NCBI RefSeq assembly: GCF_002975205.1
Contig: NZ_PCOC01000001.1
Span: forward strand, 1,922,001-1,986,000
Length of the DNA stretch: 64,000 bases
From: Ochrobactrum vermis
GTDB lineage: Bacteria; Pseudomonadota; Alphaproteobacteria; Rhizobiales; Rhizobiaceae
Direction: 5' to 3'
This document shows, piece after piece, positions 60,424-64,000 of the stretch. A program made the position numbers and the translations under genes. The notes beneath the pieces were generated by a model, which worked only from the letters and a program-made list of their open reading frames with translations, had not been told where the DNA came from and searched no databases. Numbering within the stretch: position 1 is the first letter of the stretch; every line of letters starts with the position of its first letter.

Positions 60424-60675
60424 ATGAATGAATCCATTCGCGAACTTTTGGCCAAGGTCGGCAGCCTGCCGGGAGCAGTGACCGACATCGCCGACGATGC
60501 CGATCTTTACAGCGCGGGCCTGTCCTCCTTTGCATCGGTCCAGCTCATGCTTGGTCTGGAAGACAAGTTCGATATCGAATTTCCCGACCAGTATCTCAAT
60601 CGCAAGTCTTTCGCGAGCATCAAGGCCATCGAACAGACGATCACCCAGATTCTCAAGGACAAAGAGGCCGCATAA
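60424..60675 (+). CDS. Acyl/peptidyl carrier protein
   Basis: 83 residues. Four-helix carrier protein; phosphopantetheine Ser is S35 in GLSSFASVQLM, where DSL is replaced by SSF. Not the fatty-acid AcpP (different sequence and context). Probably the acceptor for the amino acid:carrier-protein ligase two genes on. Its TAA overlaps the ATG of the dehydrogenase by one base. Confidence 0.9.
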   Translation: MNESIRELLAKVGSLPGAVTDIADDADLYSAGLSSFASVQLMLGLEDKFDIEFPDQYLNRKSFASIKAIEQTITQILKDKEAA

Positions 60676-61847
60676 TGAATGCCGGGGCGGGAAACAGTCT
60701 TTCAGAGCGCGTGGGCCGCGTTGCGGACATAGCGGGTAAATTTTCCGATAGCGTCGATAAGGAAGGCCGCTTCCCGCGCGAAGCAATCGATGCAATGAAG
60801 GCCGAAGGTCTGCTCGGCATTCAGGTGCCGACCGAGTTCGGCGGCGAGAGCGCAGAAATCGACCAGATTGCGGAACTATGTTGCGTTCTCGGCCAGTCCT
60901 GTGCGTCGAGCGCAATGATTTTCGCCATGCATCACATCAAGCTCTCCAGCGTGGTGGAACACGGCCAGACTGTCGAATGGCACCGGCACTTCATGCGCAA
61001 AATCGCGAAAGACCAGTTGTTGCTTGCATCGGCTACGACCGAAGGCGGCATCGGCGGCGATCTGCGCAACTCGATCTGTGCCATCGAGGTCGAAGGCGAC
61101 ATCTGCCGTCTGGAAAAGAACGCCACCGTCATTTCCTACGGCACCTATGCGGATGCCATTCTAATCACGTCGCGATCACACAAGGATGCTGCGTCGTCGG
61201 ATCAGGTGATGACCGTGTTCCTGAAAGACCAGTACACGCTCGAAAAGACCCACGATTGGGATACACTCGGCATGCGTGGCACTTGCTCGGAAGGATTTGT
61301 ATTCCGCGGCGAGGCTGACAAGGCGCAGATCCTGCCACATCCCTTTGCCGAAATCGCGGCGCAATCCATGCTGGCGCAGTCGCATACGCTGTGGAGCTCG
61401 CTCTGGTACGGCATCGCTGTCGATGCAGTCAACCGGGCGCAGGCATTCGTGCGCGCCGCCGCAAAGCGCAATCCGGGCGCACCGCAGCCGGGTGCCTTGC
61501 GCGTTGCCGAAGCATCCAACATGCTTCAGATGCTCAAGTCCGAAATCGTCGCCTGCCTCAAGACCTATCGCGAAGCGAAGCACGATCCTGACAAGCTGGC
61601 ATCGATGGGCTTTGCGATTGCAATGAACAATCTCAAGATTGCAGCGTCACAGACGATCCTTCAGATCATCAATCACGCCATGCTGGTCTGCGGCATTATG
61701 GGCTACAAGAACGGTACGCCTTTCAGTCTCGGACGTCATCTGCGTGACGCGCATTCCGCGCAGCTGATGATTTCCAACGAGCGCATCCTCGGCAATACGG
61801 CCACCATGCTGCTCATTCACAAACAAAACACCAGCCTTTTGGGATAA
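60675..61847 (+). CDS. Acyl-CoA dehydrogenase-like flavoprotein
   Basis: 390 residues. Acyl-CoA dehydrogenase fold: LGIQVPTEFGGES, GQSCASSAMIFAMHHI, LLASATTEGGIGGD (flavin-binding middle), and C-terminal SLGRHLRDAHSAQLMISNERILGNTATML. The usual catalytic Glu near the C-terminus is not evident, so its chemistry may differ from beta-oxidation. Analogy: in zwittermicin and similar pathways such enzymes oxidise aminoacyl- or hydroxyacyl-ACP. Overlaps acp by one base; starts a coupled operon. Confidence 0.82.
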   Translation: MNAGAGNSLSERVGRVADIAGKFSDSVDKEGRFPREAIDAMKAEGLLGIQVPTEFGGESAEIDQIAELCCVLGQSCASSAMIFAMHHIKLSSVVEHGQTVEWHRHFMRKIAKDQLLLASATTEGGIGGDLRNSICAIEVEGDICRLEKNATVISYGTYADAILITSRSHKDAASSDQVMTVFLKDQYTLEKTHDWDTLGMRGTCSEGFVFRGEADKAQILPHPFAEIAAQSMLAQSHTLWSSLWYGIAVDAVNRAQAFVRAAAKRNPGAPQPGALRVAEASNMLQMLKSEIVACLKTYREAKHDPDKLASMGFAIAMNNLKIAASQTILQIINHAMLVCGIMGYKNGTPFSLGRHLRDAHSAQLMISNERILGNTATMLLIHKQNTSLLG

Positions 61848-61852
61848 TCGTC

Positions 61853-62761
61853 ATGGATGCTCAGAGATCATTTCTAGACCGGCTTTTCGATTCCGGTCTC
61901 CTGATCGACACCGGCGTGGAAGGTCTATATGGACGCTCCGGCCAGTTCGAAGATGTCATCCAGGCATTTGAACGCCTGATCGACCGTACCGGAGGCAATG
62001 ACGGCGCCGAAGCGATCCGCTTCCCGCCCGGCATGAACCGCGCTTTCTTCGAAAAAAGCGGCTACATGAAAAGCTTCCCGCAACTGGCCGGTACGGTGCA
62101 CAGCTTCTGCGGCTGCGAGCTTGACCATGTCAACCTCATCAAATGCATGGATGAAGGCACCGACTGGACGCTGGAACAGAAGGCGACGGACATCGTTCTG
62201 ACGCCTGCAGCCTGTTACCCGCTCTATCCCACGATTGCCAGGCGCGGACCGCTGCCGCAGGGTGGCGGTCTTTACGACCTGCAATCCTACTGCTTCCGTC
62301 ATGAACCTTCGGTCGACCCTGCCCGCCAGCAGCTTTTCCGCATGCGTGAATATGTGTGCATGGGCACCGAGGCCAATGTGATGGCATTCCGCCAGCTCTG
62401 GATCGACCGTGGCACAGACATGATGAAGAAGGTCGGGCTGCCAGTTGAAATCGACGTCGCCAACGACCCGTTCTTCGGACGTGCAGGCAAGTTGCTGGTC
62501 AACAACCAGCGCGACCAGAACCTGAAGTTCGAACTGCTGATCCCGATCACCAGCGTCGAGAAGCCGACCGCCTGCATGAGCTTCAACTATCATCAGGACC
62601 AGTTCGGCGTGAAATGGGGCCTGTCGCTTGACGACGGTGCCGTGGCACACACCGCCTGCGTCGGGTTCGGACTGGAACGCATTGCACTGGCGCTCTTCCG
62701 TCACCACGGTCTGGATGTTGAGATCTGGCCGGAAAATGTACGCAAGGAATTGTGGGGCTGA
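61853..62761 (+). CDS. Amino acid:[carrier protein] ligase (seryl-tRNA synthetase-like)
   Basis: 302 residues. Class II aminoacyl-tRNA synthetase catalytic domain lacking a tRNA-binding arm. Motif 2 is CFRHEPSVDPARQQLFRMRE (around 147-166), motif 3 is ACVGFGLERIALALF near 275; zinc ligands are likely C120 (AACYPL), a Glu in MGTEA near 172 and C near 273 (HTACVG), as in the characterised Bradyrhizobium and Agrobacterium enzymes. Those activate glycine or alanine and load it on a carrier protein. Separated from the dehydrogenase gene by 5 bases. Confidence 0.9.
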   Translation: MDAQRSFLDRLFDSGLLIDTGVEGLYGRSGQFEDVIQAFERLIDRTGGNDGAEAIRFPPGMNRAFFEKSGYMKSFPQLAGTVHSFCGCELDHVNLIKCMDEGTDWTLEQKATDIVLTPAACYPLYPTIARRGPLPQGGGLYDLQSYCFRHEPSVDPARQQLFRMREYVCMGTEANVMAFRQLWIDRGTDMMKKVGLPVEIDVANDPFFGRAGKLLVNNQRDQNLKFELLIPITSVEKPTACMSFNYHQDQFGVKWGLSLDDGAVAHTACVGFGLERIALALFRHHGLDVEIWPENVRKELWG

Positions 62762-62769
62762 TCGCGACT

Positions 62770-63750
62770 ATGCAGGCTGTTTTTCCGAACATCGCGCCCG
62801 ACCGTTACACGCCGCACGCTTTGCATGCCCAGACGCGTATCTGGCCGGAAACCAACTGCTATGTCGATCTCTGGATCGAAGTGCTGGCAGCATTGGGTGT
62901 CGCTCCGGAAGCCATGCTCGGCTTCACGCTCACACAGGATTTCGAGGGCGACCAGTTCACCTTCTTCAAGGTGCCGCTGGAAGACCTCGAAGCCCTGTAC
63001 GGGGTGCGGGCGACGGAGCTTGCAATTTTCGATCGTGTGGAAAGCCATGTGGCCGAGCAGATTGCACGCGGCCGCCTGTGCATGATCGAAATGGACAGCT
63101 ACTTCATGCCGGATACGCATGGCGTCAGCTACCGGACTGAACATGGCAAGACGACCATCGCCATCAATCGTATGGACGTTGAAAACCGCTCGCTGGATTA
63201 TTTCCACAATGGCGGTTTTTATCATCTGGAAGGCGACGATTTCGACGGTGTTCTTCAGCGTCATCTGACGGAAGTCGACCTGCCCTTCCTGCCGTACACG
63301 GAATTCGCCAAGTTTCCAAAGAATGTGCCGGATGAAGCGCATCAGCGACGCGTTGCAGAAATCCTTCTGGCACGCCATTTTGCTCGCAGGCCGAAAGAAA
63401 ACCCGATCCGCGCGTTTGCCAGCGCTTTTCCTGGACAGGTAGAAGCAATCGCAGAGCGTCCGTTCGGCTTCTTCCATAAATATGCCTTCAACACACTGCG
63501 TCAGCTCGGCGCAAATTTCGAACTCGCGGCAAGTCACCTCGACTGGCTGGGGCAAGGCAAGCGTTTTGCAACGGCCTCAACGGATGCCTTGCAGATTGCG
63601 GAAACAGCAAAGGCTGTTCAGTTCCAGCTCGCCCGTGCTGTGATGCGCAAGAAATTCGACGCATTGGCCGGAACGCTGCAACCCGCAGCAGATGCCTGGG
63701 ATCGGATGATGGCAGCGCTTGCAACGGAACTCGGTCGCGATGCGGCTTGA
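62770..63750 (+). CDS. DUF1839 protein, possible BtrH-like aminoacyl transferase
   Basis: 326 residues from the ATG at 62770; an in-frame GTG at 62752 overlaps the ligase stop and has AAGGAA upstream. Cys-30 in ETNCYVDLW, and D109-S-Y-F-M-P114 ... Y121-R-T-E-H125 then a conserved Asp near 136 form a Cys/His/Asp set with the spacing seen in BtrH-like, papain-fold acyl transferases that move an aminoacyl group off a carrier protein. The relationship is my inference from motif pattern. The start of the next gene lies in its last codons. Confidence 0.75.
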   Translation: MQAVFPNIAPDRYTPHALHAQTRIWPETNCYVDLWIEVLAALGVAPEAMLGFTLTQDFEGDQFTFFKVPLEDLEALYGVRATELAIFDRVESHVAEQIARGRLCMIEMDSYFMPDTHGVSYRTEHGKTTIAINRMDVENRSLDYFHNGGFYHLEGDDFDGVLQRHLTEVDLPFLPYTEFAKFPKNVPDEAHQRRVAEILLARHFARRPKENPIRAFASAFPGQVEAIAERPFGFFHKYAFNTLRQLGANFELAASHLDWLGQGKRFATASTDALQIAETAKAVQFQLARAVMRKKFDALAGTLQPAADAWDRMMAALATELGRDAA

Positions 63751-64000
63751 ACTGAACCCGACCAGCCGCCCACTCTCGACCGGGTGGCGGCTTGTCATCA
63801 CTGGCCCGGATGCGGCACAATCGCCGCACGACGCCAGGTCCGGTGAAACGATCGATGATGCCCCCGTGCCCGGCACGGTGGCGGAAGCCCTGGAAAGAGC
63901 CGGGCGTTTCGACCGAAAAAATCCCATACCGCTCGACAATCAGGATGCTTGGTATTTTCTCGATCTTGAGGAAACAGCCGGCCCTGCCACGCTCCATTTC
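63740..64000 (+). CDS. Glycoside hydrolase family 2-like protein, 5' part only (runs off window)
   Basis: 87 residues visible from the ATG at 63740, overlapping the DUF1839 end by 11 bases. MRLELNPTSRPLSTGWRLV, VPGTVAEALERAGRFD and IPLDNQDAWYFLDL resemble the jelly-roll sugar-binding N-terminus of GH2 beta-mannosidase-like proteins (VPGTV ... LDNQDAWYF). Catalytic residues lie outside. If it is really part of the cluster, the product may be attached to or cleaved from a glycan. Confidence 0.55.
   Translation, partial: MRLELNPTSRPLSTGWRLVITGPDAAQSPHDARSGETIDDAPVPGTVAEALERAGRFDRKNPIPLDNQDAWYFLDLEETAGPATLHF

What the first reader, a model, noticed from the sequence alone, without database searches (positions are those of the whole stretch)
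60424..64000. Amino acid-on-carrier-protein cluster of unknown product
Five genes in tight coupling: carrier protein (SSF rather than DSL at its Ser), acyl-CoA dehydrogenase-like flavoprotein, aaRS-like amino acid:carrier-protein ligase, DUF1839 protein, GH2-like protein. Known: homologous ligases from Bradyrhizobium and Agrobacterium load glycine or alanine onto carrier proteins, product unknown. Inferred: amino acid is loaded, oxidised or modified, then transferred, perhaps to a glycan. The cluster continues past base 64000. Of everything in the window this is the best candidate for an uncharacterised biosynthetic system.
Basis: partly seen in the sequence, partly recalled or inferred. Interest (0 to 1): 0.82.

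Follow-up and report, generated by a model that had tools for sequence, protein, structure and literature searches.

The report
Carrier-protein amino acid transfer operon
Five neighbouring genes look like a small assembly line that fixes an amino acid to a carrier protein, alters it and then joins it to an amine, perhaps on a sugar; relatives of the set occur in other bacteria such as Rhizobium, and what it makes is not known.

Summary
In detail: carrier protein (CP), acyl-CoA-dehydrogenase-fold flavoprotein, SerRS-like amino acid:CP ligase, DUF1839 and GH2 genes lie in one tight operon (60424 to 66190, beyond the window). The order recurs in alpha- and beta-proteobacteria. In a phylum sample of 396-398 genomes the dedicated GH2 occurs in exactly the 16 that have ligase plus DUF1839; 12 others carry a ligase and flavoprotein without them.

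Best reading: a lincosamide-synthetase-like pathway with an aaRS-type loader that makes a modified aminoacyl amide, probably of an amino sugar. Acceptor and product are unproven.

Prior art: a 2010 note already described this neighbourhood and predicted ligation to a sugar amine with monooxygenation; a 2023 paper called DUF1839 papain-like.

The parts
60424..60675 (+). aminoacyl carrier protein (NF005480; Atu2571-like), 4'-phosphopantetheine Ser in GLSSF
60675..61847 (+). acyl-CoA-dehydrogenase-fold flavoprotein without the catalytic Glu (Ile366 in its place); monooxygenase-like
61853..62761 (+). SerRS-like amino acid:[carrier protein] ligase (NF005479), 302 aa, no tRNA-binding domain
62752..63750 (+). 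DUF1839 (PF08893): CcbD/CtaG-fold, papain-like carrier-protein amidotransferase (function inferred); Cys36, His131, Arg295, Arg299 (332-aa numbering)
   Evidence: PMC10318531
63719..64000 (+). start of GH2 protein with SE motif (GH2_14-like); the gene runs on to 66190 (L003:3720-6191)
   Evidence: PMC12243196

Best explanation
The operon encodes a stand-alone, carrier-protein-dependent amide-forming pathway. (1) The SerRS-like ligase activates a small amino acid (Gly or Ala in the studied homologues) and loads it on the phosphopantetheine of the dedicated CP (reported for homologues, inferred here). (2) The flavoprotein alters the CP-bound aminoacyl group, most likely by oxygenation, for example at N, rather than by alpha,beta-desaturation (inferred). 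(3) DUF1839 takes the aminoacyl group on its Cys and passes it to an amine by a ping-pong reaction, as CcbD does with proline and an amino sugar (fold shown here by a confident model; reaction inferred). (4) The acceptor is most likely an amino sugar or amino-glycoside, and the GH2, whose catalytic Glu pair is intact but whose C2 pocket is altered, trims or rearranges a beta-glycoside of that molecule (inferred). The tandem alpha/beta hydrolase is an optional partner. It works like lincosamide synthetase with an aminoacyl-tRNA-synthetase-type loader in place of an NRPS adenylation domain.
Against: No acceptor-making enzyme is conserved with the cassette: beyond the five genes and the hydrolase the most frequent neighbour families are in 12 and 11 of 44 loci. 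Holding the flavoprotein together with ordinary dehydrogenases is not rejected (AU p 0.119), and fold scores of monooxygenases and dehydrogenases are nearly tied (35.2 against 34.0, on a model of middling confidence). The window's flavoprotein passes PF00441 and is not among the PF08028 matches; 2 of 6 genomes' flavoproteins of this kind are. No sequence-level link of DUF1839 to BtrH stands up to decoys. A shared fold does not prove the reaction; AziU3/U2 does other chemistry (recalled). Twelve genomes have ligase and flavoprotein without DUF1839 or GH2, one locus has DUF1839 but no GH2 within about 20 kb (L196), and extra DUF1839 copies exist outside the cassette.
Confidence: 0.6

Rival explanations
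1. Surface modification: the aminoacyl group goes to the amino group of a cell-surface sugar (lipopolysaccharide or capsule precursor), as the authors of PMC2922099 proposed in 2010, and the GH2 processes that glycan; no diffusible product exists.
For: PMC2922099 note. Polysaccharide genes lie near several loci: O-antigen ligase and GumC in L031, a sugar aminotransferase family protein upstream in the window, and a family that looks like a glycosyltransferase by eye in 8 of 44 loci.
Against: No such family is in more than 8 of the 44 loci, to judge by eye; the GH2 start shows no signal peptide by eye; CcbD acts on a small molecule.
Confidence: 0.3
2. The flavoprotein is a true dehydrogenase or oxidase that makes an imino or dehydro-aminoacyl thioester on the CP (as RedW or ColB1 act on carrier-bound amino acids), using another base.
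Against: No Glu at the canonical position in 22 of 22, and none at the isovaleryl-type position in my alignment; the free tree puts the clade with monooxygenases at 97/91; nine of the ten best fold rows bear monooxygenase names.
Confidence: 0.3
3. The three-gene core is the real system (it makes a modified free amino acid or thioester pool), and DUF1839 with GH2 are a later, unrelated addition.
For: 12 of 28 ligase-bearing genomes have ligase and flavoprotein without DUF1839 anywhere in the genome; in B. diazoefficiens the core proteins Bll0957 and Bll0958 are listed as up in a phaR mutant (PMC10888616, table passage).
Against: Overlapping genes, and the five genes together in alpha- and beta-proteobacteria.
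Confidence: 0.1

Closest known systems
Agrobacterium Atu2571/Atu2573/Atu2574 neighbourhood (2010 note, PMC2922099; Mocibob et al. 2010, recalled)
   Different: Nothing essential: this locus is a member.
Lincosamide synthetase (CcbD/LmbD with CcbZ/LmbN CP)
   Same: CP-bound amino acid, CcbD-fold transferase over almost the whole chain, amine acceptor expected.
   Different: Loader is SerRS-like, not an NRPS adenylation domain (recalled for lincosamides); monooxygenase-like flavoprotein and GH2 in the operon; identity to CcbD only 10-13%.
Closthioamide CtaG and azinomycin AziU3/U2
   Different: Different substrates and gene context (recalled).
Bradyrhizobium bll0957/bll0958 core cluster
   Same: Homologous ligase and flavoprotein, CP nearby.
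   Different: In the 12 genomes of this kind sampled here: no DUF1839, no such GH2; CP, found in 10, on the opposite strand.
GH2 subfamily GH2_14 (PMC12243196)
   Same: SE in place of NE, no Trp/His at the C2/C3 position, nearest to beta-mannosidases.
   Different: The authors report slow pNP-beta-galactoside cleavage, weak activity of one enzyme on lacto-N-tetraose and beta-1,6-galactobiose, and no natural substrate; a term search of the text for acyl carrier found nothing.

Membership tests
Amino acid:[carrier protein] ligase (NF005479) | Family model above curated cut-off | tested here: met
   514.3 bits, cut-off 357; solved relatives 4h2w, 3mey
Amino acid:[carrier protein] ligase (NF005479) | Catalytic core without tRNA-binding domain, CP partner next door | tested here: met
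   302 aa against 518 positions of the SerRS models; CP two genes upstream
Amino acid:[carrier protein] ligase (NF005479) | Charges holo-CP with Gly or Ala | not testable with these tools
   needs enzyme assay
CcbD/CtaG-type carrier-protein amidotransferase | Same fold over the whole chain | tested here: met
CcbD/CtaG-type carrier-protein amidotransferase | Catalytic Cys and His | tested here: met
   a conserved Cys in 73 of 77 and His in 77 of 77; residue-by-residue superposition on CcbD was not seen, and the third triad member is not settled (Glu in CcbD; Ser/Thr proposed for DUF1839)
CcbD/CtaG-type carrier-protein amidotransferase | C-terminal Arg patch that binds the CP | tested here: inconclusive
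   Arg295 and Arg299 in 75 of 77 each; correspondence to CcbD Arg312/Arg316 is inferred from position
CcbD/CtaG-type carrier-protein amidotransferase | Transfers CP-bound acyl group to an amine | not testable with these tools
   needs assay
BtrH family (PF14399) | Pfam BtrH_N above gathering score | tested here: not met
   8 of 77 DUF1839 proteins touch it, best E 0.046 (14.4 bits, cut-off 29.7); hhalign no better than decoys
Acyl-CoA dehydrogenase (canonical dehydrogenase) | Catalytic Glu in the Y-E-G segment | tested here: not met
   Ile or Val in 22 of 22
Group D flavin monooxygenase | Groups with HsaA/HpaB/DszC proteins | tested here: inconclusive
   97/91 support, AU p 0.119 for the alternative; best fold rows are DszC/TdsC/MsuC by about 1 Z unit; flavoproteins of 2 of 6 genomes pass PF08028, the window's does not
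GH2 subfamily GH2_14 | SE motif and lost His/Trp at the C2/C3 position | tested here: met
   S419-E420; 101 of 103 relatives SE; PGW where beta-mannosidases have WDW
GH2 subfamily GH2_14 | Assignment by the authors' alignments | not testable with these tools
   their sequences were not at hand

The most novel reading that the evidence does not exclude
The cassette makes a widespread, undiscovered family of small aminoacyl-amino-sugar metabolites (an N-oxygenated glycyl or alanyl amide of a C2-substituted beta-hexosaminide), built like a lincosamide but loaded by a tRNA-synthetase relative; the unknown natural substrate of GH2_14 and the unknown purpose of amino acid:CP ligases are the same pathway.
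Probability: 0.3. Interest if true: 0.85.

Novelty: new variant of a known kind. Interest (0 to 1): 0.62.

Why it matters
[quoted passage not shown] Placing DUF1839 on the CcbD/CtaG fold and tying this GH2 to the cassette turns two open questions into one testable pathway, seen here in Rhizobium, Agrobacterium, Azospirillum, Mycetohabitans, Caballeronia and Cupriavidus records among others.

Tried and rejected
BtrH: my first idea was that DUF1839 is a BtrH relative. Pfam BtrH_N shows weak hits in 8 of 77 members (best E 0.046). hhalign gave E 0.0044 with the first alignment, 0.037 with the deeper one and 0.077 the other way round, no better than decoy families (ACAD 0.067). No sequence claim is made; the fold result stands on its own, and I recognise no BtrH entry among the 50 rows shown.

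CP-flavoprotein fusion: seven loci seemed to have both in one frame; the two translated show read-through of another frame upstream of the flavoprotein, and the printed sequences of the other five look the same. Rejected.

Extra partners: 44 loci clustered by similarity gave, beyond the five genes, the alpha/beta hydrolase in 25 of 44; the next families are in 12 and 11 of 44 and were not annotated. Of 107 loci counted, the hydrolase is within 700 bp of GH2 in 45 (38 on the other strand, 7 on the same), farther in 21, absent from the locus in 40, and one locus has no GH2.

SMb20651 (an S. meliloti ACP) was considered as the orthologous CP and dropped: it is acylated by SMb20650 (PMC7232532, passage).

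Rows dropped before counts: the GH2 count leaves out L201-L203 and lengths outside 780-900 aa (103 used of 110). In the flavoprotein tree 36 of 42 reference loci gave a usable frame; after removing duplicates and the window's own copy 30 remained, plus 22 cassette and core proteins. L091 (a 6451-base contig) is the one of 80 named loci without the full order. The neighbour list of the three-gene type mixes shadow frames, was cut in the output, and was used only to see that CP, flavoprotein and ligase recur.

The Foldseek 'pdb' search could not be run; only the VIA-align second look was obtained, for both models.
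Full report
What is there. The window is G000:C1:1922001-1986000. The five genes are at 60424-60675, 60675-61847, 61853-62761, 62752-63750 and 63719-66190; the last ends outside the window. Junctions overlap or are a few bases apart. Downstream, on the other strand, lies a 594-aa tandem alpha/beta hydrolase whose halves resemble the exosortase-A-associated hydrolases 2 and 1 below their cut-offs. An 18-pair hairpin between the two (L003:6251-6289) is listed as terminator-like for the minus strand, that is for the hydrolase; such sites are not in excess in that stretch. 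Further on lie ornithine cyclodeaminase and arginase family genes. So the co-directional cluster ends with GH2. dN/dS against three relatives is 0.017-0.129 for all six genes. The nearest named loci bear the names Brucella pecoris, B. tritici, B. pseudintermedia and Ochrobactrum sp., 87-96% identical in DUF1839 for the first ten.

Who has it. DUF1839 occurs in 17 of 34 other genomes of the genus and in none of the six under 4.0 Mb, one of which is only 72% complete; in 5 of 385 genomes drawn from the class, the window's own included; and in 59 plasmid records, among them Rhizobium, Azospirillum, Mycetohabitans, Caballeronia and Cupriavidus. Annotated loci of Rhizobium leguminosarum, Shinella, Azospirillum lipoferum, A. 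argentinense, Mycetohabitans rhizoxinica and Caballeronia show the same five genes in the same order with different flanks. Of 80 named loci, the best 80 of 585 and therefore close relatives, 79 show the full order. One locus (L196) has the first four genes and no GH2 within the 19.9 kb held.

Kinds of ligase locus. Of 398 genomes drawn from the phylum, 28 have a ligase above the family cut-off. Sixteen carry the full cassette; twelve carry flavoprotein and ligase, ten of them with a recognisable CP on the opposite strand, and no DUF1839 or GH2 nearby. Some of the twelve are Bradyrhizobium-like, which I infer from a ligase close to Bll0957. None of the twelve has DUF1839 anywhere in its genome, while all nine cassette genomes put to the same call do. 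A profile of the cassette GH2 finds 16 genomes above 1000 bits among 396, the same sixteen; the next match is at 270 bits. The four next-best proteins read have the usual NE motif and the WDW of beta-mannosidases; 15 of the 16 cassette proteins have SE, one NE. A further 16 genomes show only ligase matches below the cut-off.

Ligase and CP. The ligase aligns over 291 residues with Bll0957-type ligases of known structure, with the PAACYP, RMREYVC and HTxCVxFG segments kept. The CP aligns along all 83 residues with Atu2571 (2jq4, and the 4h2w complex). That such ligases load Gly or Ala is from the literature: the table of the 2022 review, which also lists Ser, was seen; the 2010 PNAS paper is not held and is recalled.

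GH2. The protein aligns with beta-mannosidases, with acid/base Glu420 and nucleophile Glu501 in register (which Glu are catalytic in the mannosidases is recalled). Both are invariant in 103 of 103 relatives; the Asn before the acid/base is Ser in 101. This is the SE motif of GH2_14, for which the authors report a Gly in place of the usual His, the fewest members with signal peptides, slow cleavage of pNP-beta-galactoside, weak activity of one enzyme on lacto-N-tetraose and beta-1,6-galactobiose, none on mannobiose or mannotriose, and no natural substrate; in the glucosaminidases of GH2_16 a Ser at the same place is explained by the amine at C2 (PMC12243196, sections 22, 23 (part 1 of 2) and 26 read). 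The link between the cassette and GH2_14 is mine.

Prior art and what is new. [quoted passage not shown] New here, as far as the calls above show: the CcbD/CtaG fold of DUF1839 over its whole length, the loss of the dehydrogenase Glu and the tree position of the flavoprotein, the linkage of the GH2_14-like enzyme to the cassette, and the split of ligase loci into full cassettes and three-gene cores.

Most likely mechanism: load, oxygenate, transfer to an amine, trim or rearrange a glycoside. Loading is reported for homologues; the transferase is supported by fold; oxygenation and sugar acceptor are inferred. Two expression hints were met: Bll0957 and Bll0958 are listed as up in a phaR mutant of Bradyrhizobium diazoefficiens (PMC10888616, table passage), and Atu2573 is named among the hub genes of a transcriptome module in Agrobacterium (PMC11941606, passage).

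Noticed in passing
L183-L195: Distant ligase relatives, many of about 400 aa with an extra N-terminal region, below the NF005479 cut-off; in 4 of 13 loci a small acyl carrier protein follows (one printed, with a DSISHM motif). Possibly a third branch of amino acid:CP ligases.
   Followed up: partly
L003:6286-8070 (minus): Tandem alpha/beta hydrolase: the first domain has GQSLG, the second GRCSG, i.e. Cys where the nucleophile Ser is expected (sequence).
   Followed up: no
L034:11974-12931, L169:15267-16191: Second DUF1839 copies beside the cassette, and one on another contig in G670.
   Followed up: no
59622-60110: Small protein upstream that looks like a truncated globin by eye (recalled resemblance); Pfam and NCBIfam found no family.
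   Followed up: no
L178:11706-13804, L180:14494-16848: Near the three-gene core in L178 lie an AMP-forming ligase and a short-chain reductase; L180 shows a similar-looking pair after a small carrier-protein-like gene, by eye.
   Followed up: no
L201; G006:C1:720931-721790: In two same-genus genomes of low assembly quality cassette genes appear in pieces; left as found.
   Followed up: no
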